Source of the DNA: Cyanobacteria bacterium RI_101
Lineage (GTDB): Bacteria > Cyanobacteriota > Cyanobacteriia > Cyanobacteriales > Microcystaceae
Direction of reading: 5' to 3'
Assembly (NCBI GenBank): GCA_016471375.1
Contig: WGLZ01000057.1
Location: 1 to 64,000, forward strand
Length of the DNA stretch: 64,000 bases
The position numbers and the translations under genes were made by a program. Of the stretch, positions 1-64,000 are shown piece by piece; the stretch's first letter is position 1; the number at the start of each line of letters is the position of its first letter. The notes under the pieces are model-generated. The model worked only from the letters and a program-made list of their open reading frames with translations. It was not told where the DNA came from and did not search any database.

Positions 1-432
1 GCGTTCTCTTTCCTCAATTCTAAAGTTCTCCTCTCGAATTCGGCGCTCTCTTTCCTCAATTCGAGCATTCTCAGCTCGTGTAATCTCTCTTTCTCGGCTT
101 CGAGCTTCAGAAATTCGGCGTTGCTCCTCTCTAACTCGGCGCTGCTCCTCTCTAACTCGGCGTTGCTCCTCTGCAATTCTAAAGTTCTCTTCTCTAGCTC
201 GGCGTTGCTCCTCCTCAAAGATTCGACGTCGTTCCTCAAGACGGACAAACCCCCGTAGGATTTGATCAGCCACCAGCAAGCCGAACGTAATCCCCGACAC
301 CAGGAGGCCAAACCATTGGGGGATGGGGAGGTCGTAGTTTCGGAATTGGAGTTTGTCATAGGCCAGAACAACGCTTGTTAAAAAGAGAAAAAGAGTCGCC
401 AATAGGGCGATTAAGGTCTGTAGATCAAACAC
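1..432 (-). CDS. Partial membrane protein with two predicted N-terminal TM segments and a highly charged coiled coil (runs off left edge)
   Basis: Not in ORF track (no stop inside window). GTG at 432 reads MFDLQTLIALLATLFLFLTSVVLAYDKLQFRNYDLPIPQWFGLLVSGITFGLLVADQILRGFVRLEERRRIFEEEQRRAREENFRIAEEQRRVREEQRRVREEQRRISEARS..., open to base 1. Confidence 0.7.
   Translation of the reverse strand, partial: MFDLQTLIALLATLFLFLTSVVLAYDKLQFRNYDLPIPQWFGLLVSGITFGLLVADQILRGFVRLEERRRIFEEEQRRAREENFRIAEEQRRVREEQRRVREEQRRISEARSREREITRAENARIEERERRIREENFRIEERER
109..213. repeat. 21-bp tandem repeat (5 contiguous imperfect units) encoding heptads EEQRRVR
   Basis: Units at 109-129, 130-150, 151-171, 172-192, 193-213, consensus tctaactcggcgttgctcctc. 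Confidence 0.8.
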
Positions 433-588
433 GGCGCTCCTCGTCCAGCGCCTTCATTTTAACCCAACCTCTCACTGGTCTCAACCAGCGCCGAGGAAGT
501 CCAAAGTCCCAACCGGCGCCGGATTACGGTGATTCGGGGTTAAGCGCCGTCATTGCGTAAACAAAAAAGGCGAGCCACTGTTATGGGT

Positions 589-712
589 TCAAGATTGCGC
601 TAGCCAGTCCTCTAAATTCGCCAAGGACTGAAAATCCAACAGTGCCTCCCCTAGCGCTTCCAACTGCGGCGCTGTTAGTTCTCAGATTTTCCCAATAACT
701 TCGGCGCAACAG
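589..712 (-). pseudogene. Degenerate C-terminal fragment resembling DUF4351 / Rpn-type PD-(D/E)XK family protein
   Basis: Minus strand reads ELTAPQLEALGEALLDFQSLANLEDWLAQS*, preceded in another frame by LLRRSYWENL; resembles the DUF4351 tail (LxLEQLEALGEALLDFxSLxDLxxWL). Frameshifted. Confidence 0.5.
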
Positions 713-814
713 CATCTGAAATCAAGGTTACCGCTAGACAGCGCCGTTCTTATCTCGGGCCAGAGCGCCGCTAAAATGCGAAGGAACCCCACTTACTTTT
801 CCCCCGCTCCGATT

Positions 815-1372
815 ATGGCGCTCACTCCCTCCGTCATGCTCCCCCTGGGCACCCCCGCCCCGGACTTTTCCCTACCGGACGTCGCGACAGGTAAAAACGT
901 TTCTTTAGCTAACTTTCCCGACCAACCGGCGCTGTTGGTGATGTTTATCTGTCGCCATTGCCCCTTTGTTAAACATATTCAGGGGGAACTGGCCCGTTTA
1001 GGGCGAGATTATCCGCCGGAAAGCCTGGCTATTGCGGCCATCAGCGCCAACGACGCCGAAAATTACCCCGCCGACGCGCCCCCGAGTTTAAAGGAAATGG
1101 TAGAAGAGTTGGGTTTTAACTTTCCCCTCCTCTACGACGAGTCCCAGGAGACGGCCCGGGCCTATCAAGCCGCCTGCACCCCGGATTTTTTCCTCTTTGA
1201 CCGCCAGCGCCGTCTGGTCTATCGGGGACAGTTGGACGACAGTCGCCCCAGTAACGAGATCCCCGTCACCGGCGCCGATCTGCGGGAAGCCATCGACGCG
1301 GTTTTGGCTGGGCGACCGGTCAACCCGGAGCAGAAAGCCAGCGTCGGCTGTAATATCAAGTGGAAAAACTAG
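815..1372 (+). CDS. Thioredoxin-fold / AhpC-TSA (redoxin) family protein
   Basis: LGTPAPDFSLPDVATGKNVSLANF...LLVMFICRHCPFVKHIQ; start at M14 of the ORF-track entry (776) preferred. Confidence 0.85.
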   Translation: MALTPSVMLPLGTPAPDFSLPDVATGKNVSLANFPDQPALLVMFICRHCPFVKHIQGELARLGRDYPPESLAIAAISANDAENYPADAPPSLKEMVEELGFNFPLLYDESQETARAYQAACTPDFFLFDRQRRLVYRGQLDDSRPSNEIPVTGADLREAIDAVLAGRPVNPEQKASVGCNIKWKN

Positions 1373-1542
1373 ACCAAAAACAGCCCCCTAAATCCCAAGT
1401 GTAACTCCCCCTCTTGGGCGGTGCCCTGAGCTTGCCGAAGGGAAAGGGCTAGGTTCTGGAGAATGGTGCCGGTCGGGTTCCTGACTTCACTCCCCCTCTC
1501 GGGAGGGGGCTGGGGGGTGGGTTCTGGACTTGAAAGCTAAAC

Positions 1543-1600
1543 CTACCCCTAACCCCTCCGAGGGAGGGGAACCGGAAACTTTGGATTCAAAGTTGGATGC
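1543..1600. repeat. Dispersed intergenic repeat (second copy at 61220-61276)
   Basis: acccctaacccctccgagggaggggaaccggaaactttggattcaaagttggatgc, nearly identical to 61220-61276. Confidence 0.8.
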
Positions 1601-1654
1601 TGGTGTATTGGTTATTTTTAACCCAATTTTAAAGATTTTTAATTTCCCCCTTTA

Positions 1655-2347
1655 ATGTCCGACTCTTCCCCCTGGCTCGCGGCCCTGCGTCAGCGCCGGG
1701 TCGTCGCCGTCATCCGTTCCGATAATCCCGATTTGGCGCTCCGTTTAGCCCATCTAGCGGCGGAGGCGGGTTTGGGTTTAATTGAAATTACCTGGAACAG
1801 CGCCGAGCCGGGTCGCTTAATCGCCCAACTGCGAAGGGACTTGCCCCAGTGTTGGATCGGCGCCGGCACCCTGTTAACCCAGGCGGATTTGGAGGAAGCC
1901 CTAGGTTGGGGCAGTCAATTCTGTTTTTCTCCCCATACCCATCCCGACCTGATTCGGTTCGCCCAAACCCGCTCCATTCCCCTAGTTCCCGGCGCCTTAA
2001 CCCCCACGGAAATCCTCGGCGCGTGGCAAAACGGCGCCGAAGTCGTGAAGGTCTTTCCCATCCAAGCGGTCGGCGGCCCGGTCTATCTGCGAGCGCTTCA
2101 AGGCCCCCTCGGTTTTATTCCCCTAATTCCCACCGGCGGCGTCACTCTGGAAAATACCCAGGCGTTTCTCTCCGCCGGCGCGATCGCGGTGGGGCTATCC
2201 GGCGCTTTGTTTCCCCGGCCCTTGGTGGACGCTCAGGACTGGCGGCGCTTGGGCCAACATCTGCGCTCCTTTGTCGAAGACCTGGGGCTTGAATCCGTTT
2301 TCCCCCTTTCTGAGGGAGAGGGATTAGGACAAGGGTCAATGGTTTAA
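1655..2347 (+). CDS. eda: Bifunctional KDPG/KHG aldolase
   Basis: RVVAVIRSDNPDLALRLAHLAAEAGLGLIEITWNS...IGAGTLLTQADLEEAL...VKVFPIQAVGGPVYLRALQGPL...LIPTGGV. Confidence 0.88.
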   Translation: MSDSSPWLAALRQRRVVAVIRSDNPDLALRLAHLAAEAGLGLIEITWNSAEPGRLIAQLRRDLPQCWIGAGTLLTQADLEEALGWGSQFCFSPHTHPDLIRFAQTRSIPLVPGALTPTEILGAWQNGAEVVKVFPIQAVGGPVYLRALQGPLGFIPLIPTGGVTLENTQAFLSAGAIAVGLSGALFPRPLVDAQDWRRLGQHLRSFVEDLGLESVFPLSEGEGLGQGSMV

Positions 2348-2381
2348 AGCGTGCTCGTTACCAAAGTCAGAGACCGCTCTT

Positions 2382-4232
2382 CTAACCCCCCAACCCTAAA
2401 AGCGTAAAGCCTTGATAAAAGACAAAGCTAAACACCCAAGCGATCACCAACGGCGCCGCTACGGAAAAGAGAGTATAGGCAATAGATTTTGTTTCCCCCC
2501 AAATGGCGCCGAGGGTGGTGAGACAGGGAATATAAAGCAAACTAAAGAGACAGTAACTAAAGCCCTGGGCAAAGGTCACCGTGCGGCTAATTTCCGCCGC
2601 TGTGCCTTCGTCGCCGAGACCGTAAATTACCGTCAGCGCCGCGATTTGCACCTCCTTGGCCACAAAGCCAAAAATTAAAGACACCGTTAAAAAGGGATTA
2701 ATGCCGAGGGGGTTCATCAGGGGTTGAAACCAACCGCCAATCTGCCCGGCGTAGGTGTCCAGACCCTCGGCGCCCTCGGGAAAGTTAGTCAACAGCCAAA
2801 TCAGGCTAGCGCCGATGACCATAAAGATCGAGAGCCGGGTCACAAACTCCTTCATTTCTCCCCAAACCCGCATCAAAACCTGTTTTAAGCTGGGGAAACG
2901 GTAGGGGGGCAACTCCAGCACAAAGGGTTCCCGGGCTTGAAAGGTTGGGAAACGACTCAAAAGCGCCGCCGTCAGAAAGGCGGCCACAAAGCTCAACAGA
3001 TAGAGCGCGAACAGGGCTACGGCGCCCTGGGAACTGGGCATGACCGCCGCCAGGATAAAGACGAAAACCTGAAGGCGGGCGGAGCAGAGGGAAAAGGGAA
3101 TCACCAGCATCGCCAGGAGCCTGAGGCCCCGACTGCGCATCACTCGGGTGCCCATGATGGCGGGGACGTTACAGCCAAAGCCCAACATTTGTAAAACGAA
3201 AGCTCGACCGTCCAACCCTAGGCGCCCCATCAGGGAATCCATCAAATAGGCGGCCCGGGAGAGGTAGCCGCTCCCCTCCAACAATCCCATGACGATAAAA
3301 AAGAGCGCCACTAGGGGCACAAAGGAAAGCAACGCCGCGAAACCGGCCCAGATCCCGTCGATCAACAGACCCCGAACCAGTTCCGGCAAAGGGGAGACTA
3401 GAGGCTCAAGGATCTGCGCCTGGAGCCAGCCCGTCACCGCGTCCACCGGGTCGGCGCTGGGGAGTCCAATCGTCCAGACAACCCAAAAGGCGGCGAACAT
3501 AGAGGCGAAGAAAAGGGGAATACCCCAAAAAGAATGGAGCAGAATCCCGTCGAGGGCGTTGGTAAAGGTGCGGGCCGTAATGGAGGGCATCTGCACGGCG
3601 CCCCGGAGAATGGCGTCGATCCGCTCCTGATTAATGGCTTGGGTCGCCAGCGCCGCGCCGAGGTTTTCCACCCGCTGGGTTTGGCTATGCTCCAGGGTTA
3701 AACGCCGGATCGCTTCCGTCGCCCGAACACAGCCGGTTCCCTGTTTGGCGCTAATGGCGTAGAGGGGGATATCTAGGCGCTCGCTCAGCGCCGGCAGATC
3801 GAGGCGCACCCCGTAGCGGTGGGCTTCGTCAATCAGATTCAGAACCCCGACGGCCGGTAATCCAAGGCTCTGAACTTGCAGTAGCAGTCTTAACTGCCGG
3901 TCAATTTGAGCGGCGTTGAGGACGACGATAATTAAATTCACCCCGTAGCTTTCCAGAAAGCGCCGCACGACCGCCTCGTCTTCGGAGAAGCCGTTCAGGT
4001 CGTAGATTCCCGGTAGATCCACCACCTCGATCCCTTCGCTCTCCCATTTAACCGTCGCTTGAAACAGATCCACCGTCAGCCCCGGCCAGTTGGCGATGGC
4101 CGCGTTGGCGCCGGTGAGACGGTTAAAGAAGGTGGATTTGCCGGTGTTGGGTTGACCAATGAGGGCAATCCGTCGTTGCGCCTTACCCCTAGGGGCAGGG
4201 GGCGGACTGCCATGACAAGATGGGGCGACCAT
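2382..4232 (-). CDS. feoB: Ferrous iron transport protein B
   Basis: IALIGQPNTGKSTFFNRLTGANAAIANWPGLTVD G-domain plus multi-TM gate region GFGCNVPAIMGTRVMRS. Confidence 0.95.
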   Translation of the reverse strand: MVAPSCHGSPPPAPRGKAQRRIALIGQPNTGKSTFFNRLTGANAAIANWPGLTVDLFQATVKWESEGIEVVDLPGIYDLNGFSEDEAVVRRFLESYGVNLIIVVLNAAQIDRQLRLLLQVQSLGLPAVGVLNLIDEAHRYGVRLDLPALSERLDIPLYAISAKQGTGCVRATEAIRRLTLEHSQTQRVENLGAALATQAINQERIDAILRGAVQMPSITARTFTNALDGILLHSFWGIPLFFASMFAAFWVVWTIGLPSADPVDAVTGWLQAQILEPLVSPLPELVRGLLIDGIWAGFAALLSFVPLVALFFIVMGLLEGSGYLSRAAYLMDSLMGRLGLDGRAFVLQMLGFGCNVPAIMGTRVMRSRGLRLLAMLVIPFSLCSARLQVFVFILAAVMPSSQGAVALFALYLLSFVAAFLTAALLSRFPTFQAREPFVLELPPYRFPSLKQVLMRVWGEMKEFVTRLSIFMVIGASLIWLLTNFPEGAEGLDTYAGQIGGWFQPLMNPLGINPFLTVSLIFGFVAKEVQIAALTVIYGLGDEGTAAEISRTVTFAQGFSYCLFSLLYIPCLTTLGAIWGETKSIAYTLFSVAAPLVIAWVFSFVFYQGFTLLGLGG

Positions 4233-4266
4233 GGCCCGACCTCCGTTGATGGATAAAATTTTTGAG

Positions 4267-4512
4267 CTAATTAGAATCTTGGATCGTCACCAAAGCGGCC
4301 TCGCTCCGGCGCATAGCCACTTCCGTAGTGCTCCCCACTCGGATATGGAGGGGACCGCCAAAAACCGCTTTCCGTAAAATCTGAACCGGTTTGTCAGGAA
4401 AAATTCCCATCGCTTCTAAGCGGGTCGCTAGCCCCTGACCGTGGGAGCCAAGGAGAACTTCGTTAACAAGGGCGATTTGGCCCACGGGCAGGTCTAGGAG
4501 GGTCATTTTCAA
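4267..4512 (-). CDS. feoA: Ferrous iron transport protein A
   Basis: 81 aa SH3-like protein (TRLEAMGIFPDKPVQILRKAVFGGPLHIRVGSTTEVAMRRSEA) directly upstream of feoB. Confidence 0.9.
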   Translation of the reverse strand: MKMTLLDLPVGQIALVNEVLLGSHGQGLATRLEAMGIFPDKPVQILRKAVFGGPLHIRVGSTTEVAMRRSEAALVTIQDSN

Positions 4513-4527
4513 CCTCGACAGTGATAG

Positions 4528-4546
4528 TAATTATTCTCAATAATTA
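4528..4546 (-). promoter_or_regulatory. Candidate Fur operator upstream of feoAB
   Basis: Perfect inverted repeat TAATTATT-CTC-AATAATTA 15 nt upstream of the feoA ATG; resembles Fur-box consensus. Confidence 0.65.
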
Positions 4547-4728
4547 GCATAGCGCCAGACGCGGTAGACAGCGCAACTTTTTTTGAAATCGGTATTGTTA
4601 TTTAGCTATATAAGCATTAAAGGCGCCGACGGGCTATGGTCAGCGACTTTTTCCGGTTCCGCAAACAATCGGCGCCGAGGGTTGACAAAATCGGGCCGGT
4701 TTGCCATGATAGAAAACAGCAAATTTTT

Positions 4729-4800
4729 GCGGGCATAGCTCAGTGGTAGAGCGTCACCTTGCCAAGGTGAATGTCGCGCGTTCGAATCGCGTTGCCCGCT
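4729..4800 (+). tRNA. tRNA-Gly (anticodon GCC)
   Basis: GCGGGCA...TGCCCGC acceptor stem, D-arm AGCTCAGTGGTAGAGC, anticodon arm CCTTGCCAAGG, T-loop GTTCGAATC. Confidence 0.97.
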
Positions 4801-4806
4801 TAGAGA

Positions 4807-5952
4807 CTAGAAAGAAAATGCGCTTCCCAGCTTAGCAGTAAACTTACGCTGGATTTTTTCCACCGTCTCCCGGTAACTGGCGTCGCCGCTAAAGACCCGG
4901 AGCATTTGGGCGGCGCCAGAACTGGACTGCACCCCCAATTGGTAGCTCAAACGGGGAAAACGATAGAACAAAGCGGATAACCGCTGGGCCCAGCGCATTT
5001 CCCCGCCCCACTCTGTCGCCATGCTCCGGGTATAGTTCGCCAAGGCGTCCAGGTCGCCCCCCAAGGCCCGATCCACCGCCTTAGCCGCCTCCAGAGCGCT
5101 GTGAATCGAGGGACGGATGCCCTCGGCGGTAAAGGGATCGACCACCCCCGCCGCTTCCCCCGCCACCAGCGCCTGCTGGGTATGGAGGGTTTGGGAGCCG
5201 TTCCAGAGGAGAATCGGATGCCCGTAGAGCTTAGACTCAGTCGCGTCCACGCCGAAGTCTTTAGAGTAACGCTCCAGGGACGGGATGAGATCCCGAGACT
5301 GACGCTGGCGGGAGTTGAAAACGCCGCTCCCAAGGGAATAACCGTCCGCCTTGGGAAAATTCCAGACGTAGCCGTTGTTCACCAGCCCAAATTCAAAATA
5401 GGCCCGCTGGGGATGGGGCACGGTTAACCGGGGTTCGATTTCCACCGCCCCCGCCGTTAACACCTGACGGCGCCGGAACCCGAGCCATTGGGCGCCGAGA
5501 CCCTTGGCGCCGTCCGCGGCTATTAGATAGCGCCCTTGAAAGGGGCCTTGATCCGAGTTCACCACCCAGCGGTCTTGAGTAAAGTTCAGACCCAAAGCTT
5601 TTGTCCCCTCCTGGAGAGCGGCGCCCTGGCCTAGGGCTTGTCGGACGAGAAAATAGTCAAATTGATCCCGCCGCACCATCCAAATACATTCCCCCGGCGC
5701 CATCTGGGTCATTACCTCTTCCCCCTGCTTCCAGGTAAAGCAAAACTCGTTCACCCGAGCGGAAATCACCGGCTCAAAATCAAAATCAAACCACTGGGCG
5801 ATTTGGGGAGAAACGCCGCCGCCGCAGGGCTTGTAACGGGGTAGAGTCGCTTTTTCAAGGAGCAAGACCGAGCGTCCCGCCTTCGCCAAGTGATAGGCCG
5901 CCGAGGCGCCGGCCGGGCCCGCCCCGAGGATAACGCAGTCGTAAAGGGTCAT
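4807..5952 (-). CDS. Geranylgeranyl reductase family FAD-dependent oxidoreductase
   Basis: DCVILGAGPAGASAAYHLAKAGRSVLLLEKATLPRYKPCGGGVS; VAGEAAGVVDPFTAEGI. Confidence 0.9.
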   Translation of the reverse strand: MTLYDCVILGAGPAGASAAYHLAKAGRSVLLLEKATLPRYKPCGGGVSPQIAQWFDFDFEPVISARVNEFCFTWKQGEEVMTQMAPGECIWMVRRDQFDYFLVRQALGQGAALQEGTKALGLNFTQDRWVVNSDQGPFQGRYLIAADGAKGLGAQWLGFRRRQVLTAGAVEIEPRLTVPHPQRAYFEFGLVNNGYVWNFPKADGYSLGSGVFNSRQRQSRDLIPSLERYSKDFGVDATESKLYGHPILLWNGSQTLHTQQALVAGEAAGVVDPFTAEGIRPSIHSALEAAKAVDRALGGDLDALANYTRSMATEWGGEMRWAQRLSALFYRFPRLSYQLGVQSSSGAAQMLRVFSGDASYRETVEKIQRKFTAKLGSAFSF

Positions 5953-6029
5953 AGAGAATGAAGACCGAGAGGAATAAAGTTATGATCTATTATCTATAGC
6001 CGCCTCTCCTTTTCCCCCGCACTCCCACT

Positions 6030-6764
6030 ATGTTTGACCCGGCGACTCTCCTCTATACCCTCCAGCAATGGGGCGACGGTTTGGTGAATCAACAGTTGAC
6101 CCACCTCTCTCCCCTAAGTTTGGGCGTCATTTTCGGCGTCGGCGTCCTCACGAGCTTAACCCCCTGCACCTTGTCCCTCCTGCCTCTGACGGTGGCTTAC
6201 CTAGGCGGCCCCCAGGTGAATAACCGGAGACAACTGCTCGGGCAAACCTTCGGCTTTACCCTCGGTTTAGGCACCACCCTAGCGGGGTTGGGGGTGGTGG
6301 CCGCAGGTTTGGGGCGCCTCTACGGGCAGGTGGGTCTAGCTCTGCCCCTGCTGGTCAGCGCCCTGGCTATTGTTATGGGTTTAAATCTGTTGGGTCTGGT
6401 TCCCCTGCGTTTTCCTAGTTTAGGCGCCACAGACTGGATTTCTGCGGACTGGTCGCCGGGGCTTCGGGCCTACCTGATTGGCTTAACCTTCGGCCTAGTG
6501 GCCTCTCCCTGTAGCACTCCTGTTTTAGCCACCCTGCTGGGTTGGGTCGCCGCTAGCCAAAACTTGACCCTCGGCGCCGGTTTACTGCTAGCCTACGCCC
6601 TCGGCGCGGTTTTTCCCCTCGCCCTAGCGGGTCTCTTTACCGGGACGTTAAAACGGTTACTGGCTCTGCGGCAATGGTCTGGCTGGCTCAATCCCCTCAG
6701 CGGCGCTGTGTTGATTAGCTTTGGAGTCTTTTCTCTGCTCTCGCGGGTTACAGATATCAGATGA
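6030..6764 (+). CDS. ccdA: Cytochrome c biogenesis protein CcdA-type membrane thiol transporter
   Basis: GVGVLTSLTPCTLSLLPLTVAYLGG ... GLTFGLVASPCSTPVLATLLGWVA. Confidence 0.9.
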   Translation: MFDPATLLYTLQQWGDGLVNQQLTHLSPLSLGVIFGVGVLTSLTPCTLSLLPLTVAYLGGPQVNNRRQLLGQTFGFTLGLGTTLAGLGVVAAGLGRLYGQVGLALPLLVSALAIVMGLNLLGLVPLRFPSLGATDWISADWSPGLRAYLIGLTFGLVASPCSTPVLATLLGWVAASQNLTLGAGLLLAYALGAVFPLALAGLFTGTLKRLLALRQWSGWLNPLSGAVLISFGVFSLLSRVTDIR

Positions 6765-6786
6765 CAGATATCAGGTGTCAGTATCA
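6750..6786. repeat. CTGATATCTG-type short repeat cluster
   Basis: acagatatcagatgacagatatcaggtgtcagtatca overlapping the 3' end of ccdA. Confidence 0.75.
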
Positions 6787-6828
6787 AGGTTGATAGAGAG
6801 GATTTTTTCATCGGCGCCGGCGCCAAGG

Positions 6829-8177: not shown

Positions 8178-8183
8178 GGGGAG

Positions 8184-10442: not shown

Positions 10443-10494
10443 GGTTTAAAAACAGTGTTTAAAGATTAAGCGGGCTAAGAGGCTATTCGGAAAG

Positions 10495-10562
10495 CCCCCC
10501 TAACCCCCCAATTCTGGGGGGAACCGGATTCAAAGTCCCCCAAAGTTGGGGGATTTAGGGGG
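10495..10562. repeat. C-rich/G-rich intergenic hairpin repeat
   Basis: cccccctaaccccccaattctggggggaaccggattcaaagtcccccaaagttgggggatttaggggg between sufB and sufC. Confidence 0.75.
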
Positions 10563-10615
10563 CGGATCTACCGATCCTTTAAGGGAAAAACCCAGTCGGG
10601 CTAGACATCTCCCCG

Positions 10616-12371: not shown

Positions 12372-12543
12372 AATTTTGAATCAAGTTCCCCCCTTTCAAA
12401 CCTTTAGCCCTCATCCTCATCCCTCTCCCTCCTTCGGCGGGCTTAGGAAGCGGGGAGAGGGACTGTTACTCCTCTTTTCCTAGAGTCGGAAAAGGGGCAG
12501 GGGGGATGAGGGCAAACAGTTGTCAACCTAACCTAGATGGAGT

Positions 12544-15144
12544 TTAGGCAAAGACAAAGTCCGCGGCGGTGAGCGCCGAAACGTCAAAGCCGCTCAGAAT
12601 GGCGAAGACGTCGCCGTTGAACTTAATATCGTTACCGTCGAAACTGAGGTTGGCGAAGCCCGCCCCGGCGCCTTGGTTAAGGACGCCGATGACGTCAACC
12701 CCTTGGGTAAAGTCCGTCACCGTGTTGGGCGTTTCGGGAATTTCATCCGTCAGCAACCAGAACTGATCCGCCCCGGCGCCGCCGGCCAGAAGGTTATCGC
12801 CCCCGGTTCCGACAAAGAAACGGTCGGCGCCGTCGCCGCCCAGAACCCGGCCGCCTTGACCGAGGAAGAAGAGGTCGTCCCCTTCGCCGCCGGAAATCCG
12901 GTAGTTTTGGGCGTCGGTTGCGTCAAACTCATCGGCGCCGCTACCTCCGTTGACCCGGTCGTTATTGCCCACAAAGAGCAGATCGTCGCCGCTTCCGGCA
13001 AAAATCCGGTTGCCGCCAACCCCGGCGCCGCCGAAGGGAACATCCACTTCGTCGTTGCCGGCGCCGGTGAAGACGAGGTCGTTAACGCCGACAAAGTCCA
13101 GACCCGCCACTAATAAATCGGCGTCGGGAGTGCCGCTCACCAGTTCCCCGGCGGGAGGTTCGGGAACCACGGGTAAAATCGCGTCTTCCCGGACGGAGAG
13201 ATTTTGAATGCGGGTATCCAGTTCAATGGGGGTGTCCCCCTCGTTAAAGGGTTGGCTGGCGTTGGGGTAGAACGCGCCTAAATACTCCGCTAGGGCGTCC
13301 TGTTCTCCGGCTTGGGGGAGATTTGGCGCTTGGTTGGGGAAGGTTTCCGGCGCCGTTAGATCCGCCAGTTTGGTCACATTTTGGAAGTAAAAACTGGGAT
13401 AGCCGTCGCCGCCGCCCGCTAAAAAGTCGAGAATGACCATTTTATAGGTTTGGTCGGGGGCGACCTTTAATTCCCCGTTTTCGACGATCACCGCTTCCGA
13501 GCCGTCGTTTTGAACCATGACCAAGTTTTGAATCCGTTGGCCGGGGGTCGCCACCGCCGTGGCCAGGCCGTTAGCATTCCGCTCAAAAACAATGGCTGTT
13601 TTGCTGGGATCAAAGCTAAAGCGGAAGCCGCCGATTTGCCCAAATTGCCCCGGCGTGGCGCCGGGGGCCCAGGCCGCGACAAAATATTCCGCTAAATCCT
13701 TCAGCCCCTGGGCGCTGATGTCGGCGACAGACAGTTTATTGTCAAAGCGGAGGGAGTTGCCGATGTCCAACTGGGAGATATCCCCTTCCGCCTTGCCCAC
13801 CGCCGGATTGGCCGGAGGCGGCAGTTCGATAAATTCGTTGCTTCCGCCGTCGATGAAGGAGATCCCAATTTGATCCCGGATACCGCCGCCGTTTTTGACG
13901 GAAATATCAATATCAAAGCCATACTGCTCGGCGTACCAGAGGTTGGCATCCGCGGTTAAATTCCCGAGGTTGGTTTCTTCGGAACGGACGCTTCCCCGAC
14001 GCCCATTCAGATAAACCAAGGTGTTGCCGTAGATGGAGCCGTCGAGGGTGTTGATAAAAGCCCCGACGTTATCCACCACCGCCACTAATTCGGGATCCGC
14101 TAGCGCCTTGACTTGCTCAAAGGTGGCGACGCTCTCTTCGTAAAGACGATCCACCCCGCTGATATCCGTGGCGTAGGGGCCGCTCTCGGCGCCGATTTCG
14201 GTAATGAGACCGTTGGCGTCAAACTCCACCACCAGTTGTCCCAAGTAACGATAGTTGGGCGCGGTGTTGATCAGATAAATGGGATTGCCGTCGGCGTCGG
14301 TAAATTCCTGAGGATAGGGTCGCAACAACTCCGGCGGGGTTTGGGCCTCGTCCTGGCGCAGAGGGGTTCCTTCGCTGGCCATAACCCGGTGGGAGCCGCC
14401 CCCCATTAAAACGTCCACATTTTTTAATTTCGGCGCCAGCGCCTGCTCGATTTCAAACTGTTGTAGGTGGGTCATGAGGACAATTTTGTTAATCCCCTGA
14501 TTAACGAGGTCGTCCACCACCGGCTGAATATTAGCCGCTAAGTTCTGGGCGTTGGTTTCGATATCCCGAGTATTGGGATCGGTGAGCATCTGGATTTTGC
14601 CGATGCCCGCGATTTGGGGCAGGTAGGGCACTACGGCGCCGACGACCCCGATCTGTTCGCCGTTAATCTCAATGACCACGCTCCCCGCTAAGCTATTGGG
14701 CAAGGGCGCCTGACCGTTGGGTTTCACTAGGGACTGTAAATTGGCTTCCTGGGAATAATCCAAATTCGTGGCCAGGTAGGGGAACTGAGCGCCGAGATAA
14801 CCTTCCGGGCCAATGCCCACCCCGCTAATACTCGCCTTCGGCGCCAAGAGGTTAAAAAACGTTCCCGGCCCGGCGTCAAATTCGTGGTTCCCCACCGCCG
14901 CGGCGTCCCAGCCCAATTCGTTTTGGATCAAGATATCGGCGATACCGGCTTGCCCGTAAAGATCTGTGCTGGCGTTAAAGAAGGGGCCGGCGATAAATAG
15001 ATCCCCGGAGCTTAACTTCAGAGTGTTTTCATACTGACCTTCGAGGGCGTTCATCACCGCCGAGAGGCCAACGGCGTCTTGAAGCGCCGGAATGCCCGCT
15101 TCCTGGTCGGAGGCGTGGAGAATTTGCAGAGTATAGTCAGTCAT
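12544..15144 (-). CDS. Metallophosphatase/5'-nucleotidase with C-terminal RTX (hemolysin-type Ca-binding) repeats
   Basis: LQILHASDQEAG, AVGNHEFDAGPGTFF, LMTHLQQ, MGGGSHR phosphoesterase motifs; C-term GGSGADEF, GGEGDDLF, GGDGADRF, GGAGADQF. Confidence 0.9.
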   Translation of the reverse strand: MTDYTLQILHASDQEAGIPALQDAVGLSAVMNALEGQYENTLKLSSGDLFIAGPFFNASTDLYGQAGIADILIQNELGWDAAAVGNHEFDAGPGTFFNLLAPKASISGVGIGPEGYLGAQFPYLATNLDYSQEANLQSLVKPNGQAPLPNSLAGSVVIEINGEQIGVVGAVVPYLPQIAGIGKIQMLTDPNTRDIETNAQNLAANIQPVVDDLVNQGINKIVLMTHLQQFEIEQALAPKLKNVDVLMGGGSHRVMASEGTPLRQDEAQTPPELLRPYPQEFTDADGNPIYLINTAPNYRYLGQLVVEFDANGLITEIGAESGPYATDISGVDRLYEESVATFEQVKALADPELVAVVDNVGAFINTLDGSIYGNTLVYLNGRRGSVRSEETNLGNLTADANLWYAEQYGFDIDISVKNGGGIRDQIGISFIDGGSNEFIELPPPANPAVGKAEGDISQLDIGNSLRFDNKLSVADISAQGLKDLAEYFVAAWAPGATPGQFGQIGGFRFSFDPSKTAIVFERNANGLATAVATPGQRIQNLVMVQNDGSEAVIVENGELKVAPDQTYKMVILDFLAGGGDGYPSFYFQNVTKLADLTAPETFPNQAPNLPQAGEQDALAEYLGAFYPNASQPFNEGDTPIELDTRIQNLSVREDAILPVVPEPPAGELVSGTPDADLLVAGLDFVGVNDLVFTGAGNDEVDVPFGGAGVGGNRIFAGSGDDLLFVGNNDRVNGGSGADEFDATDAQNYRISGGEGDDLFFLGQGGRVLGGDGADRFFVGTGGDNLLAGGAGADQFWLLTDEIPETPNTVTDFTQGVDVIGVLNQGAGAGFANLSFDGNDIKFNGDVFAILSGFDVSALTAADFVFA

Positions 15145-53939: not shown

Positions 53940-53962
53940 TCTCTCTATCTTATTTTTTACCC

Positions 53963-57294: not shown

Positions 57295-57800
57295 GCAGGT
57301 TTTCAACGGCGGGAGGGCCGCCTGGGGTCGCCTTCTCGTCGTCGAGGGATGTTTCGGCTTCGGTCGCGCCAGTATGTGAGAACGAAATAGTTTTGGCCAA
57401 GAAATCATTGTCGGCAAAAATCGCCCCGCTCCCGGAGGGGCGGCCCAGCGCCGCGTTGGCGCGCTCTCAAAATCAAGGATCTAAGGCGAGAAGGCGATAT
57501 TTGAGCGGGGATTGTTCTCTAGGATCGGCGCTTTATGAAGAAATCTTGACATTTCCGGGAAGATCGGCGCTTTAACAGGTCACAAGTCCCCCTAGAGTCG
57601 GCGCTGGACGCTTGTTTTTTGGCCCGCTTCCCTTACAATTAGTCCCAAAATCCAGTAAAGTATCTCGCGCTGTGGGGGAACAAATTGAAGGCGGTGGACG
57701 ACCAATTTAGGAAGTTACGCCTCGCGGATCTCCGGTTCGCTTCTTCCCCTAGGCCCGTTAATTTTCACGTTAACCTTTTATAAGGAAACCGACCCCCACC

Positions 57801-58358
57801 ATGATTCTCAATAAATTAAAAGACTTTGTCGGCATTAGCGAGCAGGACGACTATGAGGACGAGTACGAAGACGCCGATTGGCAACAGTCTCAGTCCGCCG
57901 CTCCCCAACGAACCGAGGAGACGACGGATTCCCGACGGCCCGCCCGCGAGCCTTTAAATTTATCCTCTAACGAAACCCCCCTAGGGACAGGAGCGAGAAA
58001 TAACGTGATTGGCATGCCCGGTATCAATAACAATATCGCCGAGGTGGTGGTGGTGGAGCCTCATTCCTTTGAAGAGATGCCCCAGGTGATCCAGACCCTC
58101 CGGGATCGCAAGTCGGTGGTGCTCAACCTCAACGAGATGCCCCCGGAAGAAGCCCAGCGGGCGGTGGATTTTGTGGCGGGGGGAACCTACGCCATCGACG
58201 GTCATCAAGAGCGCATCGGCGAAAGCATTTTCCTCTTCACCCCTAACTGCGTCAAGGTCAGCACCCTCTCCGGCGTTCCCCAGGATTTGCCGGAACCGGC
58301 GCCGAGCCGAAGCTTTCCCTCTCCCTGGGGGTTAGAAAATAGTCGCTTGGCCCAATAA
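57801..58358 (+). CDS. sepF: Cell division protein SepF
   Basis: [24 protein letters not shown]...[66 protein letters not shown]. Confidence 0.95.
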
Positions 58359-58458
58359 GTGCCGTTGGAGGGATTGAAGAGAGCGGCGTTTTTTCCTAAA
58401 CTAGCTGGAAAACCCCTAACCGCCACTCTAGCGACTTGCCCTTTCCCGAATTTTTCTC

Positions 58459-59268
58459 GTGTCTATTCATCTTGGTATCATTGGCGGGGGAGTGATGGCG
58501 GAAGCGATCCTCTCCCGTCTCGTTTCTCAGCAAATTTACGGCCCGGAGCAAGTTCTTGTCAGCGATCCCCAGTTAAATCGCCGGGAATTTCTCAAGCAAA
58601 CTTACCAGGTGCGGGTCTCGGAAGATAACCAAGCGGCGGCGAACGCTTCGGAGGCCGTTATTTTGGCGGTTAAGCCCCAAATTTTAGACCGGGTGATCGC
58701 GGGACTCGCGGGGGGGCAGGATAAACCCCTCATTATTTCGGTTTTGGCGGGCACTCCCATTAGTCGCTTGGAGTTTGGCTTTCCCGATCATCCCATCATT
58801 CGAGCCATGCCCAACACCCCCGCCACGGTGGGCGCCGGGATGACGGCGCTAGCGCCGAATAAATTGGTGGAGGCCTACCACCTCAGTTTAGCCAAATCCA
58901 TTTTCGCCGCCGTCGGACAGGTGGTAGAGGTGCCGGAATCTTTAATGGACGGGGTTACGGGCCTTTCCGGGTCTGGACCGGCCTATGTGGCGCTGTTGGT
59001 GGAGGCCTTGGCGGACGGCGGCGTGGCTTCGGGCCTACCCCGTTCCATCGCGGCTAAATTAGCGCTGCAAACGGTGTTGGGCACGGCCCAATATCTTCAG
59101 GAAACCGGCATTCATCCGGCGGAGTTAAAAGACCGAGTCACCAGTCCGGGGGGAACCACCATCGCCGGGGTGACGGTGTTGGAAAAAATGGGGTTTCGAG
59201 CGGCGCTCATCGAAGCGGTGCGGGCGGCGTTTCGGCGCTCCCAGGAGTTGGGCAAACATAAGTCTTAG
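58459..59268 (+). CDS. proC: Pyrroline-5-carboxylate reductase
   Basis: LGIIGGGVMAEAILSRL...AVKPQILDRV...RAMPNTPATVGAGMTAL...GLSGSGPAYVALLVEALADGGVASGLPR...SPGGTTIAGV. Confidence 0.96.
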   Translation: MSIHLGIIGGGVMAEAILSRLVSQQIYGPEQVLVSDPQLNRREFLKQTYQVRVSEDNQAAANASEAVILAVKPQILDRVIAGLAGGQDKPLIISVLAGTPISRLEFGFPDHPIIRAMPNTPATVGAGMTALAPNKLVEAYHLSLAKSIFAAVGQVVEVPESLMDGVTGLSGSGPAYVALLVEALADGGVASGLPRSIAAKLALQTVLGTAQYLQETGIHPAELKDRVTSPGGTTIAGVTVLEKMGFRAALIEAVRAAFRRSQELGKHKS

Positions 59269-59316
59269 CCAGTCAAGGGCATTTTGGCCGGTTTAGGGGA
59301 GTCCAACGCCCATACC

Positions 59317-60717
59317 TTAGCCGGGCGGGCCCGGGAAGCGAATTTTTGCCGCCAACTCGCTTCGGAGACGAGCGAGCACGGAAGCCTCGTCCAGGGAGCG
59401 TAAAATCGCCTTGGCCGACTGTTTTGGCCCCTCCGGCCCCCAAACGGCGCCCTGGGCCAAATAGGTTTTGGCGATCTGCCCAATGGCGTAGCTCGAAACC
59501 CCCGCGACGCTCCCCTGGGTCAGGGCCGCGGCGGTATAGGGCGCGAGGGTTAGCCCCCCGGTGACGGGAACGGTTAAGCCCAATAACCCCTTGGCGGAAC
59601 TGAGACCTAAACTGGCTAAAAATTCGCTGGCGCCGACGCCCCCCATACTCAGGCCAATTTGCCGCAGAAGGGCGACGGCGGCGGGCTGGGTTAGGGGCAG
59701 TTCGTAGAGACGAGCGAGGGAGAGGATCAGGGCGACGTCAATGACGGCGCCGGAGAAGAGATCCAGCGCCGAGACGGGATTGAGCGCCACCGCCGCGGCT
59801 TTGACCAGCATCGCTTTTTGGATAACCTCGTCGGCCAGGCGCTCCCGCAGGGCCAGCTTGCGGGCCACCACGGCGGCGTTAATCTGGTCGGCGCCGAGGA
59901 GGGCGTTGAGCGCCACTAGGGATTTGCCTTCCCGTTCCAAAAGCTCAAAAATACGCAGACGCAGGGGCGCGATTTGGGGATCTCCCCGGTAAACCCGGCG
60001 CTGGAGTTTCCCGTCGGCGCTTTGTCGAACCTCAGTGATTAAAGGACTGGCGGCGATTAAGACAATTTCCTCGGGAGATAACAGGTCTTTAACCCGCTCG
60101 TCCCGAATTTTTTCGTAAATGGCCTGACGATCCGCCGGGGGATATTGGTCGATTTTATTAATGGCCAGCACCATCGGTTTCCCCGCTTGGCGCAGTTGGG
60201 AAAGCGCGTCGTATTCCAGTTGGCAGAGATCCCCCGCCGCGATGAAGAGAATTAAATCCGCGGCTTCGGCGGCGCTTTGGGCTAAGCGGGCCCGCTCCTC
60301 CCCTCCCACTTCGTCTAGCCCCGGCGTGTCTAATAACTGGACTTCCCCCCGCCCCCAACCGGCCAAGATCTGAGTCGGCGCCGCCCAGGTCGTCGCGCCT
60401 ACCGTTTGGGTAACTCCATGGGTCGGCCCCGTCTCAAAAGCGGTCGTCCCCGCCAGGGCGTTGAGCGCCGAGGATTTTCCCCGCCCCACCAGCCCAAAGG
60501 CGGCGATGTGGAGACGGCTTTGTTCCAATTTTTCCAACAGTTGGGAAAGGCGTTCCAGATCCTGTTCCAACCCGAGGCGCTCCCTCGGACTCAAGGCGCT
60601 GGACTGTAACACCCGCCGCAGACTGCGCTGAGCCTGTTGATAATTCAGTTCTTGTTGGATGGTGTTAAAAGCGTCTAAAGCCTGATCTAGGGCGTCCGGC
60701 GCCGGTGAGTCCTGCAT
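59317..60717 (-). CDS. Dynamin/Era-like GTPase with DUF697-type membrane domain
   Basis: FGLVGRGKSSALNALAG...LLDTPGLDEVGGEERARLAQ...LAINKIDQYPPAD; hydrophobic C-terminal half. Confidence 0.88.
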   Translation of the reverse strand: MQDSPAPDALDQALDAFNTIQQELNYQQAQRSLRRVLQSSALSPRERLGLEQDLERLSQLLEKLEQSRLHIAAFGLVGRGKSSALNALAGTTAFETGPTHGVTQTVGATTWAAPTQILAGWGRGEVQLLDTPGLDEVGGEERARLAQSAAEAADLILFIAAGDLCQLEYDALSQLRQAGKPMVLAINKIDQYPPADRQAIYEKIRDERVKDLLSPEEIVLIAASPLITEVRQSADGKLQRRVYRGDPQIAPLRLRIFELLEREGKSLVALNALLGADQINAAVVARKLALRERLADEVIQKAMLVKAAAVALNPVSALDLFSGAVIDVALILSLARLYELPLTQPAAVALLRQIGLSMGGVGASEFLASLGLSSAKGLLGLTVPVTGGLTLAPYTAAALTQGSVAGVSSYAIGQIAKTYLAQGAVWGPEGPKQSAKAILRSLDEASVLARLRSELAAKIRFPGPPG

Positions 60718-60738
60718 GGAAACGGTTAGTTTAAGGAA

Positions 60739-61044
60739 TTAAGCTTCGCGGCAGTGGGTCGCCAGTAGGCGCTCCAGTTGTTGCGCCGATCCCCTAGGGG
60801 ACAGACGGGGCAGAATCTTTTCCCCCTGGGGGGAGCGCCAACAGAGAACCGGAATCTCATATTCCCAGGCGGCCAGCCAATCGGCGCGAGTGGTGATATC
60901 CCGCGTTTCTAGATCAATAGTAAAGTTACTCACCTGGGCTAGTTTCTCCGCTAGGGCTTCGCAGAGGTGACAACCGGGCTTGCTGTAGAGAATTAAAGGG
61001 AGGGGAAGGGGAGAATCGGCGCTCATAATCGCAAATTGTAACAA
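60739..61044 (-). CDS. Glutaredoxin-like family protein
   Basis: LILYSKPGCHLCEALAEKLAQVSNFTIDLETRDITTRADWLAAWEYEIPVLCW. Confidence 0.88.
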   Translation of the reverse strand: MLQFAIMSADSPLPLPLILYSKPGCHLCEALAEKLAQVSNFTIDLETRDITTRADWLAAWEYEIPVLCWRSPQGEKILPRLSPRGSAQQLERLLATHCREA

Positions 61045-61219
61045 TTTGTAAGGGACTCGGTTTCCGGGGCGGGAAATCTTTCTAGACTAGAAAAAGATGG
61101 CTCTCTCCCTTTAGCGGTTATCTAACGATAGGGCTAACCGGCTTTCTGAATCTCCTTCTATCGGGAGACTTTAAGGCCGTTTTCCTTGATAAGCCCCATC
61201 CGCGAGATCTAGCGCTAAC

Positions 61220-61276
61220 CCACCCCTAACCCCTCCGATGGAGGGGAACCGGAAACTTCGGATTTCAAGTTAGATG
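61220..61276. repeat. Dispersed intergenic repeat (second copy of 1543-1600)
   Basis: acccctaacccctccgatggaggggaaccggaaacttcggatttcaagttagatgc. Confidence 0.8.
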
Positions 61277-61284
61277 CGGTTTAG

Positions 61285-61323
61285 CCGATAACTGATATCT
61301 GATCACTGATATCTGAAATCTGT
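61285..61323. repeat. CTGATATCTG-type short repeat cluster
   Basis: ccgataactgatatctgatcactgatatctgaaatctgt. Confidence 0.75.
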
Positions 61324-61356
61324 CCACTACTCCTCGCCTTTGGCGCTTTTAATGCC

Positions 61357-61677
61357 ATGACTAAACTCTTTTCCCTTTGCCTGACGGCCCTTGGTCTAGT
61401 CGCCTTTGCTCTACCCCTCGGCGCCGAGCCGTCCTCCAGTTTTGAAGACAGCGCCTTAAACAGTTTACCCCTCTCGGAAGGCTCCGCCCAGGATCTTCAG
61501 GGCACCTTGGCTCGGGACGCCTCCCTGTGGCTAGGGGGCGTGGGCGGCGGCGACGACGACCTGACGGAGGACGAGGCTAACGTTTACCAGATTCATCAAT
61601 CGGAACAGGAAGACGGCGCTTTGCAGAACTTCCTCACCGACGGCGTCCATCCCGGCGCGGCCCTAGGACGGTTTTAG
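61357..61677 (+). CDS. Small exported acidic protein of unknown function
   Basis: Signal peptide MTKLFSLCLTALGLVAFALPLGAEP then acidic mature part with LGGVGGGDDDLTEDEANVYQIH. Confidence 0.65.
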   Translation: MTKLFSLCLTALGLVAFALPLGAEPSSSFEDSALNSLPLSEGSAQDLQGTLARDASLWLGGVGGGDDDLTEDEANVYQIHQSEQEDGALQNFLTDGVHPGAALGRF

Positions 61678-61680
61678 TCC

Positions 61681-62472
61681 ATGGCCCCCGCCGGCGCCGG
61701 CCCTATTGTTCTGAACGAAGTCGATCTCCTCTGGACGTTAGGTTTACTGGCCTTGACTGTTAGCCTTGCGACCTGGCAACGCCTCGGTTTAAGCGGACAA
61801 ATGCTCTGGGCCGGTTTCCGGTCTATTGTCCAACTCCTGGTGGTGGGCGCTAGCTTGACCCTGGTCTTCGCCTTGGATAATCCCTGGGCGGTGGCGCTGG
61901 TGTTGGGGATCATGTCCGCCATCGCCGCGGCGGTGGCGCGAAACCGGATGCAGATTCCCGGAGAAAACGGGCTATGGATTTGGCTCTCCATTACCTTTAG
62001 CGCCGCGCTGACCCTCGTTTATAGTTTGGCCCTCATTATTCAACCGCCGGTTTGGTACTCGCCTCAGTATTTAATTCCCTTGGCGGGGATGGTTCTGGGC
62101 AACGCCATGAACAGCGCCACTTTGGCGGGGGAACGTCTCGCGAGTTTGATTCGCCAGAGCACTCAGGAAATCGAGACCTACCTATCCCTCGGCGCGTCCC
62201 CCAGTCAAGCCATTTTCGCCTACCGACAGGCGGCGCTGAAGGCCAGCTTAACGCCCATCTTGAACCAAATGCTGGTGGTCGGTTTGGTCAGTCTGCCGGG
62301 AATGTTCACCGGGCAGGTGTTAGCGGGAAGCGATCCCCTTAACGCCGCCTCCTACCAAATTTTGATTCTCTTCATGATCCTCCTAACGGATCTCGTCTCG
62401 GCGCTGTTGGTCTGCGAGGGAGCGCGGCGCCGCTTTTTCAACGGCGCTTGGCAACTGCTGGCGGATCGGTAA
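61681..62472 (+). CDS. ABC transporter permease, FetB/YbbM (UPF0014) family
   Basis: QRLGLSGQMLWAGFRSIVQLLVVGASLTLVF; GMVLGNAMNSATLAGERLASLIRQSTQEIETYLSLGASPSQA; LVSLPGMFTGQVLAGSDPLNAASYQI. Confidence 0.92.
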   Translation: MAPAGAGPIVLNEVDLLWTLGLLALTVSLATWQRLGLSGQMLWAGFRSIVQLLVVGASLTLVFALDNPWAVALVLGIMSAIAAAVARNRMQIPGENGLWIWLSITFSAALTLVYSLALIIQPPVWYSPQYLIPLAGMVLGNAMNSATLAGERLASLIRQSTQEIETYLSLGASPSQAIFAYRQAALKASLTPILNQMLVVGLVSLPGMFTGQVLAGSDPLNAASYQILILFMILLTDLVSALLVCEGARRRFFNGAWQLLADR

Positions 62473-62479
62473 TATGACG

Positions 62480-62788
62480 TTAATCGACCCGAGCGAGGGC
62501 GTCTCCAATATCCTGGATCAAAAAGACAAAATAGTAGCCCGTATATCTCCGGCTTTTTCGATCGCCCTCGGGAACCAGTTGTTTTTCTAACGTCTCGTAG
62601 TCCTCCGGCACAGCGCAGAACCCCCTAGCTCCCGGCGCTTGTTCGTAGGCCTTGAATCGGGTTCCCTGCGGCAATCGGCATTCAAAACTCCCCGTAACCG
62701 GCGCCGCCCAAGTCGTTAGTCCGTGGGTGGCAACATCTCGGGTGAGAATGAAGCGCTCGCCTTCTTTAACTGGGGGGATGCTGTTCAT
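62480..62788 (-). CDS. Hypothetical protein downstream of a DNA methyltransferase
   Basis: 102 aa MNSIPPVKEGERFILTRDVATHGLTTWAAPVTGSFECRLPQGTRF...; 18-bp gap from the methyltransferase, same strand. Confidence 0.65.
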   Translation of the reverse strand: MNSIPPVKEGERFILTRDVATHGLTTWAAPVTGSFECRLPQGTRFKAYEQAPGARGFCAVPEDYETLEKQLVPEGDRKSRRYTGYYFVFLIQDIGDALARVD

Positions 62789-62806
62789 GGCGCCGTTACC
62801 GGTCGT

Positions 62807-64000
62807 CTAACCGGCGCTTTTGTCCTTTTCGCAGATAATAACATACTCAAAAAGCATGGTATTCACCTTTGCGCCTTTTTGATTACTGGGGGAATTTTGG
62901 GAGGGCATCACTTTACTGCTCAGCGCCCGTTCATAGGTGATCTGGTGTTTAAAGCCATACTGCTCAAACTGCTCGGCGATAAATTGATCGGTGGGTAACT
63001 GCGCGCCCTTGACTGTTCGATTACCCACGAGGTAAATAATGTTTCCGCCTGGGTTAATCTGGGGCGCGATTTGGGCAATCGAGTCTTGTAAATCAAAATA
63101 AAAAGCGGAGACGTCCAGCGCCCTTTTTTCATCAATTTGGGCGATTTGACTAATCGTTTGCTCTAAAACGCCCTGATTGTATAACCGTTTGACCCGTTTG
63201 CCGCCCATTAAGGCGTTATCTAGTTTTCTGGCTTCGTTAACGCCCAACCACTCATTAGCCAAGGTGGAAAACTGACCGTAGGCCACGGTGGTGCGACTAT
63301 CGCCGTAGGGGGGACTGGTGAGGACAATATCAAAGGTTTGTTGGGGATTAACTTCCGCTGAAAACGGCGCTTGTCGGAGTTCTAAATGGGTCTCTTCCTG
63401 AATTTTGGGGAAATAATAGTCGGCGTAAATCTGAATAGAATCGGTTAATTTCTTAAAAAAGGCGCTGAAGACATCAGGATTAAAGCTTAATATTTCCGCC
63501 GGTTTGATGCGATATAATTTGAACTCATTATTGCGGGTATAAGAACATTCCCGGATGGTTTCAGCGTAGGGAACTAGGAAAAAGTTTTTAATTTTTTGGT
63601 CTTCCATTTGATCAATAAAATATCTTAAAACATTGAGATTCTGCGCTACCGCGGGGGAAAACCAGTAATCGATGTTGGTAATATTTGGCAGTTCTAAACG
63701 ATTTAAATTTTTTTCCTTTTTGACAAACTCAAACACCGCTTCCCGCAGTTTTTGCCGAGCTTCATCCAGCGCCGCCGGGGCGATTTTTGTAAATTTAGCC
63801 TGGGTGATTAAAATCGCCAGGGGATTGAGATCAAAGCCAAACATTTGCGTAATTCCCACATCTAGGGCCGCGGCGAAGGAAGAGCCAGAGCCGCAATAGG
63901 GATCAAGCAAAATTCCACTGCTAATTCCTAGGCGCTTGAGGAGGGCGACGCCGATTTGGGGCAACATCGTCGCCGGATATTTATGGAGATTGGGGTACAG
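62807..64000 (-). CDS. DNA methyltransferase (amino-MTase type, N4-cytosine or N6-adenine), 5' end beyond right edge
   Basis: Motif I ILLDPYCGSGSSFAAALDVG and motif IV VLTSPPYGDSRTTVAYGQFS. Frame continues upstream of the track's ATG (LYPNLHKYPAT|MLPQIG...) with no stop to base 64000. Confidence 0.88.
   Translation of the reverse strand: MYPNLHKYPATMLPQIGVALLKRLGISSGILLDPYCGSGSSFAAALDVGITQMFGFDLNPLAILITQAKFTKIAPAALDEARQKLREAVFEFVKKEKNLNRLELPNITNIDYWFSPAVAQNLNVLRYFIDQMEDQKIKNFFLVPYAETIRECSYTRNNEFKLYRIKPAEILSFNPDVFSAFFKKLTDSIQIYADYYFPKIQEETHLELRQAPFSAEVNPQQTFDIVLTSPPYGDSRTTVAYGQFSTLANEWLGVNEARKLDNALMGGKRVKRLYNQGVLEQTISQIAQIDEKRALDVSAFYFDLQDSIAQIAPQINPGGNIIYLVGNRTVKGAQLPTDQFIAEQFEQYGFKHQITYERALSSKVMPSQNSPSNQKGAKVNTMLFEYVIICEKDKSAG

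What the first reader, a model, noticed from the sequence alone, without database searches (positions are those of the whole stretch)
1..64000. GGCGCC (RGCGCY-type) appears to be an alternate highly iterated palindrome replacing HIP1
Seen: GGCGCC, usually in context CGGCGCCG, and its one-off forms AGCGCC/GGCGCT recur throughout genes in different frames and in intergenic DNA (for example near 486, 4622, 4673, 6816, 12267, 21342, 31456, 39324, 54361). A hand count in 12541-15144 gives about 13 GGCGCC in 2.6 kb, roughly one per 200 bp, versus roughly one per 1.9 kb expected for random DNA at about 57% GC (my estimate). The usual cyanobacterial HIP1 GCGATCGC was noticed only once (about 2180). 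Established: published comparative work on cyanobacterial HIPs (Elhai) describes genomes where HIP1 is replaced by another GC-rich palindrome accompanied by a cognate DNA methyltransferase. Inference: this genome is such a case, with a GGCGCC or RGCGCY core.
Basis: partly seen in the sequence, partly recalled or inferred. Interest (0 to 1): 0.75.

Follow-up and report, generated by a model that had tools for sequence, protein, structure and literature searches.

The report
CGGCGCC palindrome replaces cyanobacterial HIP1
This cyanobacterium has lost the short DNA palindrome (HIP1) that fills its relatives' genomes and carries about 4,800 copies of a different one, CGGCGCCG, together with DNA methyltransferases its relatives lack; this makes it a natural experiment on how such genome-filling sequences arise.

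Summary
The window has 193 GGCGCC (47 expected) and 95 CGGCGCCG (4 expected). The genome (3.75 Mb) has 4,834 CGGCGCCG, about 1,290 per Mb, and only 74 HIP1. None of 290 other cyanobacteria compares. Three congeners carry 3,110-3,424 HIP1. A fourth (G065) has lost HIP1 without gaining CGGCGCCG. Enrichment survives a null that keeps proteins and codon usage, holds in all three frames and in intergenic DNA, has no wider conserved flank, Poisson-like spacing and no strand bias. Synonymous near-miss sequences are drained away (GGTGCC as Gly-Ala: 3 seen, 80 expected), as they are around HIP1 in a congener. It is an alternate HIP, as proposed. Two corrections apply. First, the iterated unit is CGGCGCY: GGCGCC, GGCGCT and AGCGCC are enriched, but AGCGCT is not and CAGCGCTG is nearly absent. 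Second, the matching methyltransferase is not settled. The genome lacks the HIP1-type CGATCG methyltransferase and has two m5C enzymes its congeners lack. One is an orphan whose family targets GRCGYC, the type Elhai linked to GGCGCC in Calothrix PCC 7103; the other has unknown specificity. GRCGYC does not explain the AGCGCC/GGCGCT forms. No methylation data exist here.

The parts
1..64000 (.). Dispersed iterated sequence: 95 CGGCGCCG, 193 GGCGCC, 101 CGGCGCT on + and 90 on - (as AGCGCCG)
432..780 (.). Dense intergenic cluster of CGGCGCY/RGCGCCG and related sites in under 350 bp, for example CGGCGCT at 432, CAGCGCCG near 486, CGGCGCCG at 514
   Evidence: sequence; intergenic enrichment 48 CGGCGCY against 3.5 expected
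12541..15144 (.).
4671..4676 (+). Representative intergenic GGCGCC (within CGGCGCCG) upstream of tRNA-Gly
6813..6824 (+). Tandem GGCGCCGGCGCC, two adjacent copies in an intergenic gap
2180..2187 (+). The only HIP1 (GCGATCGC) in the window
   Evidence: genome total 74

Best explanation
CGGCGCCG/CGGCGCY is an alternate highly iterated palindrome (HIP). The lineage lost the CGATCG m5C methyltransferase that goes with HIP1, and HIP1 decayed. It then gained one or two orphan m5C methyltransferases, and a biased process coupled to their methylation mark converted near-miss sequences into CGGCGCY wherever the protein allowed, up to about one complete palindrome per 780 bp. Shown: the enrichment, its species-specificity, the missing CGATCG-type enzyme, the species-specific m5C enzymes and the drained synonymous near-misses. 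Inferred: that the sites are methylated, which enzyme does it, and that methyl-directed mismatch repair (Elhai's G-meC model) rather than selection does the converting.
For: Density: 4,834 CGGCGCCG against 27-32 in three congeners; in 443 kb, 554 against 24.6 expected. HIP1: 74 here, 3,110-3,424 in three congeners, and 134 in G065. The DmtC-like ~430-aa m5C enzyme is found in G218, G252 and G318 and not in G000 or G065. C57:32877-33899 (341 aa) has full-length homologs in 28 of 290 others, and those examined usually lie next to RE_HindVP nucleases. In G008 and G120, which carry both, GRCGYC is avoided (1/198 and 4/132). In G000 no such nuclease gene is beside it and GRCGYC is not avoided (1818/660). 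C70:9412-10683 is a second m5C enzyme, found in only 3 of 290 others. All frames and intergenic DNA are enriched. Synonymous near-misses are drained: GGTGCC 3/79.5 and GGGGCC 24/140 in the Gly-Ala frame; around HIP1 in G318, GCGATTGC 1/27.5 and GCTATCGC 0/15. None of the orthologous sites is kept in G065 or G318 (0/47, 0/53), so sites turn over.
Against: No methylation data exist. The enzyme predicted to recognise GRCGYC does not explain why CGGCGCT/AGCGCCG is as enriched as CGGCGCCG (19x against 19x where the amino acid fixes the base), nor why GGCGTC and GACGTC are only about 1.5x. The second enzyme's specificity is unknown; site avoidance in its three relatives gave no answer. The methyltransferase census covered only PF00145 and PF01555 plus one window enzyme. 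G065 lost HIP1 and the DmtC-like enzyme without gaining CGGCGCCG, so that loss alone does not suffice.
Confidence: 0.6

Rival explanations
1. Selection on the sequence itself: CGGCGCY binds a protein (chromosome organisation, repair or replication) and copies are kept because they are useful; the methyltransferases are bystanders.
For: Both complete and half-degenerate sites are enriched while the doubly weak site CAGCGCTG is nearly absent, as expected for a dimeric reader needing one strong half. Synonymous sites fill first, nonsynonymous ones less.
Against: No positional preference: Poisson-like spacing (CV 1.06), no strand polarity (617 against 637), coding and intergenic alike, and none of the orthologous sites kept in congeners.
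Confidence: 0.2
2. DNA uptake sequence: the motif is a self-specific signal for natural transformation, enriched by biased uptake.
For: From general knowledge, uptake sequences also reach about one per kb. CGGCGCY is not strictly palindromic.
Against: Known uptake sequences are longer; here there is no information beyond about one base either side of the 8-mer. Congeners carry HIP1 instead.
Confidence: 0.07
3. By-product of GC-rich codon usage and amino-acid composition (Gly-Ala, Ala-Pro, Ala-Leu).
For: The genome is GC-richer than its congeners (GC3 0.63 against 0.50-0.52).
Against: Codon- and protein-preserving shuffles leave 8.7x for CGGCGCCG in coding DNA, in every frame; intergenic 9 against 0.3; the same-composition control GCCGCGGC is 1.8x.
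Confidence: 0.02
4. Decay picture: only GGCGCC is made; AGCGCC/GGCGCT are products of methyl-C deamination.
For: Most deviations at the second base are G to A, and AGCGCT is not enriched.
Against: CGGCGCT is enriched as strongly as CGGCGCC where the base is fixed by Leu rather than Pro (9.7x and 6.5x; 8-mers 19.1x and 18.8x); decay would need mass Pro-to-Leu replacement.
Confidence: 0.06

Closest known systems
Alternate HIP GGCGCC of Calothrix PCC 7103 and D253 (Elhai 2015, PMC4390886)
   Same: Same hexamer core, HIP1 nearly absent, and presence of a GRCGYC-type m5C methyltransferase (paper for Calothrix; inferred here).
   Different: Calothrix's top 8-mer is CAGGCGCC at 159 per Mb; here CGGCGCCG at about 1,290 per Mb, and AGGCGCCT is not enriched (8/12). 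The paper reports the other GRCGYC members as depleted in Calothrix; here GGCGTC and GACGTC are mildly enriched and AGCGCC/GGCGCT strongly so. A different cyanobacterial family.
Alternate HIP RCCGGY of Oscillatoria PCC 10802 (Elhai 2015)
   Same: Three of the four members of a degenerate palindrome are enriched and the A...T member is not.
   Different: Different core (CCGG against GCGC), and there the DmtD methyltransferase specificity fits the motif; here no enzyme is shown to fit.
HIP1 (GCGATCGC) with DmtC/DmtA methyltransferases
   Same: Density near one per kb, coding and intergenic, GC-rich palindrome, drained synonymous near-misses (G318).
   Different: Sequence differs, and HIP1 and the DmtC-like enzyme are missing in this genome.

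Membership tests
Highly iterated palindromes (HIPs, Elhai 2015) | A GC-rich palindrome is the most overrepresented 8-mer palindrome | tested here: met
   CGGCGCCG 1,251 per Mb in a 443-kb sample, O/E 22.5, next palindrome 187 per Mb
Highly iterated palindromes (HIPs, Elhai 2015) | Density about 500-2500 per Mb | tested here: met
   4,834 in 3.75 Mb
Highly iterated palindromes (HIPs, Elhai 2015) | Present in coding DNA regardless of frame and in intergenic DNA, beyond codon effects | tested here: met
Highly iterated palindromes (HIPs, Elhai 2015) | Methyltransferase able to methylate the sequence is encoded | tested here: inconclusive
   Orphan m5C enzyme of a family linked to GRCGYC (covers GGCGCC only), plus one of unknown specificity
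Highly iterated palindromes (HIPs, Elhai 2015) | Unit is strictly palindromic | tested here: inconclusive
   Modal form is palindromic, but CGGCGCT is enriched equally; unit best written CGGCGCY
HIP1 itself | GCGATCGC overrepresented | tested here: not met
   74 copies, 0.65 of expectation in the sample
HIP1 itself | DmtC-type CGATCG m5C methyltransferase present | tested here: not met
   Only three PF00145 proteins, none of that type
Chi/KOPS-like polar motifs | Strand orientation bias | tested here: not met
   617 against 637, chi-square 22.4 on 21 df
DNA uptake sequences | Enhances uptake of DNA | not testable with these tools
   needs transformation assays
GRCGYC methyltransferases (HindV type), for C57:32877-33899 | Orthologs paired with RE_HindVP in genomes that avoid GRCGYC | tested here: met
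GRCGYC methyltransferases (HindV type), for C57:32877-33899 | Methylates GRCGYC | not testable with these tools
   needs expression and methylation sequencing

The most novel reading that the evidence does not exclude
The drive unit is a non-palindromic heptamer, CGGCGCY, propagated by a methyltransferase of unknown specificity (perhaps the C70 enzyme) plus a repair bias, so a HIP-type drive does not require a palindrome and the palindrome is only two overlapping units.
Probability: 0.3. Interest if true: 0.75.

Novelty: new variant of a known kind. Interest (0 to 1): 0.57.

Why it matters
What HIP sequences do, and how they come and go, has been open for decades. Here one genus contains HIP1-rich genomes, one that lost HIP1 (G065) and one that replaced it (this genome), each with a different set of m5C methyltransferases. 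That turns the methylation-coupled origin of HIPs into something testable with two candidate genes. The exact unit (CGGCGCY, with AGCGCT excluded) and the drained synonymous precursors are quantitative constraints that any mechanism must meet.

Tried and rejected
Composition or codon usage: rejected by codon-preserving shuffles. Dispersed repeats carrying the motif: no flank information beyond about one base. Chi/KOPS-like polarity: rejected. Deamination decay as the source of AGCGCC/GGCGCT: disfavoured by the frame test. New sites built on old HIP1 sites: HIP1 positions of G318 usually read GCCATCGC or unrelated in G000. HaeII (RGCGCY) systems: REases found in 10 cyanobacteria but not in G000, next to methyltransferases only 25-28% identical to the C57 enzyme. 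C55 m5C enzyme: a SinI-type system (PF09570 nuclease alongside); a similar m5C enzyme is in G065, and GGWCC is avoided in both. Window-end methyltransferase (62807-64060): I first took it for the conserved GGCC enzyme Sll0729; one search showed it is absent from all four congeners, and its plasmid homologs sit by MvaI/BcnI nucleases. Specificity of the C70 enzyme by site avoidance: no clear answer.
Full report
OBSERVATION. The window has 193 GGCGCC against 47 +/- 7 in shuffles and 95 CGGCGCCG against 4.2 expected. The window is contig C6 of a 3.75-Mb, 102-contig assembly (99.98% complete) with 4,834 CGGCGCCG, 418 of the same letters read backwards, and 74 HIP1. Among 290 other cyanobacteria the highest CGGCGCCG count is 1,051, in a genome whose control count is 965.

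CODON AND FRAME CONTROLS. Shuffling synonymous codons among genes keeps proteins and codon usage. Against this null CGGCGCCG is 86 against 11.1 in the window and 465 against 53.4 over 347 kb of genes, in all three frames (6x, 19x, 7x). Intergenic DNA gives 9 against 0.3. Flanks of the 8-mer carry no more than 0.06 bits per position, spacing is Poisson-like (CV 1.06) and there is no strand polarity.

THE UNIT. Relative to congener G065, sites were sorted by half-site: CGGCGCCG 143-fold, CGGCGCTG 67-fold, CGGCGCY with other ends about 24-fold, GGCGCC without CG flanks about 5-fold, AGCGCT forms about 1-2-fold, CAGCGCTG 0.1-fold. Against the codon null CGGCGCC is 5.0x, CGGCGCT 8.5x, CGGCGCA 0.22x, and CAGCGCTG 1 against 6.4. 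Where the variable base is the second base of a codon (Leu or Pro), CGGCGCTG and CGGCGCCG are both 19x. So CGGCGCT is a primary product and not decay of CGGCGCC. The best description is CGGCGCY, that is, three of the four members of RGCGCY in a preferred CG context.

HOW SITES ARISE. In Gly-Ala codon pairs (frame 0 of GGCGCC) the synonymous neighbours are depleted: GGTGCC 3 against 79.5, GGGGCC 24 against 140, GGAGCC 34 against 76. Neighbours that would need an amino-acid change are mostly not depleted. The same drain surrounds HIP1 in congener G318 (GCGATTGC 1 against 27.5; GCTATCGC 0 against 15). In codon alignments at about 74% amino-acid identity, none of 47 and 53 CGGCGCCG sites is present in G065 or G318, and HIP1 sites of G318 are not where CGGCGCCG sits in G000. 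The two systems therefore fill the genome independently.

RELATIVES. Three congeners have 3,110-3,424 HIP1. G065 has 134 and this genome 74. The HIP1-rich three encode an m5C methyltransferase of about 430 aa; the G218 copy is 44-47% identical to the corresponding proteins of eight other family members. It is absent from G000 and G065. I take it to be the CGATCG enzyme (DmtC/M.Ssp6803I) from Elhai 2015 and PMC6560206 and from 15-fold CGATCG enrichment in G318; that is inference.

METHYLTRANSFERASES. G000 has three PF00145 enzymes. C55 is a SinI-type system, with a similar m5C enzyme in G065 and GGWCC avoided in both genomes. C57:32877-33899 (341 aa) has full-length homologs in 28 of 290 genomes, and those examined usually lie beside RE_HindVP (PF09519) nucleases; HindV recognising GRCGYC is from general knowledge. 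In G008 (69% identical enzyme plus nuclease) GRCGYC is 1 against 198 while AGCGCC is not avoided (73/50); in G120 GRCGYC is 4 against 132. In G000 the neighbourhood has no such nuclease and GRCGYC is 2.8-fold enriched, so the enzyme looks like an orphan. A genome-wide nuclease search was not made. Orphan status alone does not suffice: in G259, a genome that keeps HIP1 (1,393), the C57-type enzyme is joined to a truncated nuclease and CGGCGCCG is at background (28 against 26). C70:9412-10683 (424 aa) is found in three others, two of them with an intact-looking unclassified nuclease alongside and the third with a shorter one. Its specificity is unknown. The window-end enzyme (62807-64060) is absent from congeners and of MvaI/BcnI type by association, so it is not a good candidate.

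MECHANISM. Elhai's model (PMC4390886) proposes that mismatch repair directed by G-methyl-C favours mutations that create a methylated GC, and that losing HIP1 opens the way to another motif when a suitable methyltransferase is present. The two-part pattern here (DmtC-like enzyme lost, orphan GRCGYC-type enzyme gained) fits, and independently repeats the Calothrix PCC 7103 association. But a GRCGYC enzyme predicts GGCGTC/GACGCC as intermediates, which are only about 1.5x, and not AGCGCC/GGCGCT, which dominate. Either the C70 enzyme is the main writer, or both act, or the converting step reads the sequence differently. I put the alternate-HIP identification near 0.9 and the methylation-coupled mechanism near 0.6.

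LIMITS. No methylation data. Methyltransferase census incomplete (PF00145 and PF01555 only, plus one window enzyme). Fine analysis rests on 443 kb of the genome. Only five genomes of the genus were available.

Noticed in passing
window 62807-64000 (-), continuing to G000:C6:64060: Orphan-looking DNA methyltransferase (TSPPYGDS motif) absent from all four congeners; plasmid homologs (33-40% identity) sit next to MvaI/BcnI-family nucleases, suggesting CCNGG-type specificity.
   Followed up: partly
window about 10474-10568: Intergenic element of about 90 bp between sufC and sufB with dozens of similar copies across the genome, some at contig ends, and weaker ones in congeners.
   Followed up: no
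G065 sample (L110-L129): This congener lost HIP1 and shows GGCC at 4,610 per 400 kb (1.84x first-order expectation; G318 0.91x, G000 0.65x), possibly a tetranucleotide alternate HIP.
   Followed up: partly
G000 sample, 443 kb: GAGCTC, CTCGAG, TCCGGA and CAGCTG are nearly absent (0.03-0.07 of expectation), suggesting past or present restriction at these sites.
   Followed up: no
G244 (same class, 5.3 Mb): CGGCGCCG 106 against control 6; may be another genome with a GGCGCC-type motif, but sequence could not be fetched.
   Followed up: no
G000 against G065 and G318 orthologs: Codons touching CGGCGCCG (and HIP1 in G318) are less conserved in amino acid than background (0.60-0.69 against 0.75), so sites fall in, or drive, protein change.
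   Followed up: partly
L291 1120-3255 (G000:C53 near 88645): Type III-like modification methyltransferase of 711 aa; no congener shows a comparable match (its distribution was not searched further).
   Followed up: no
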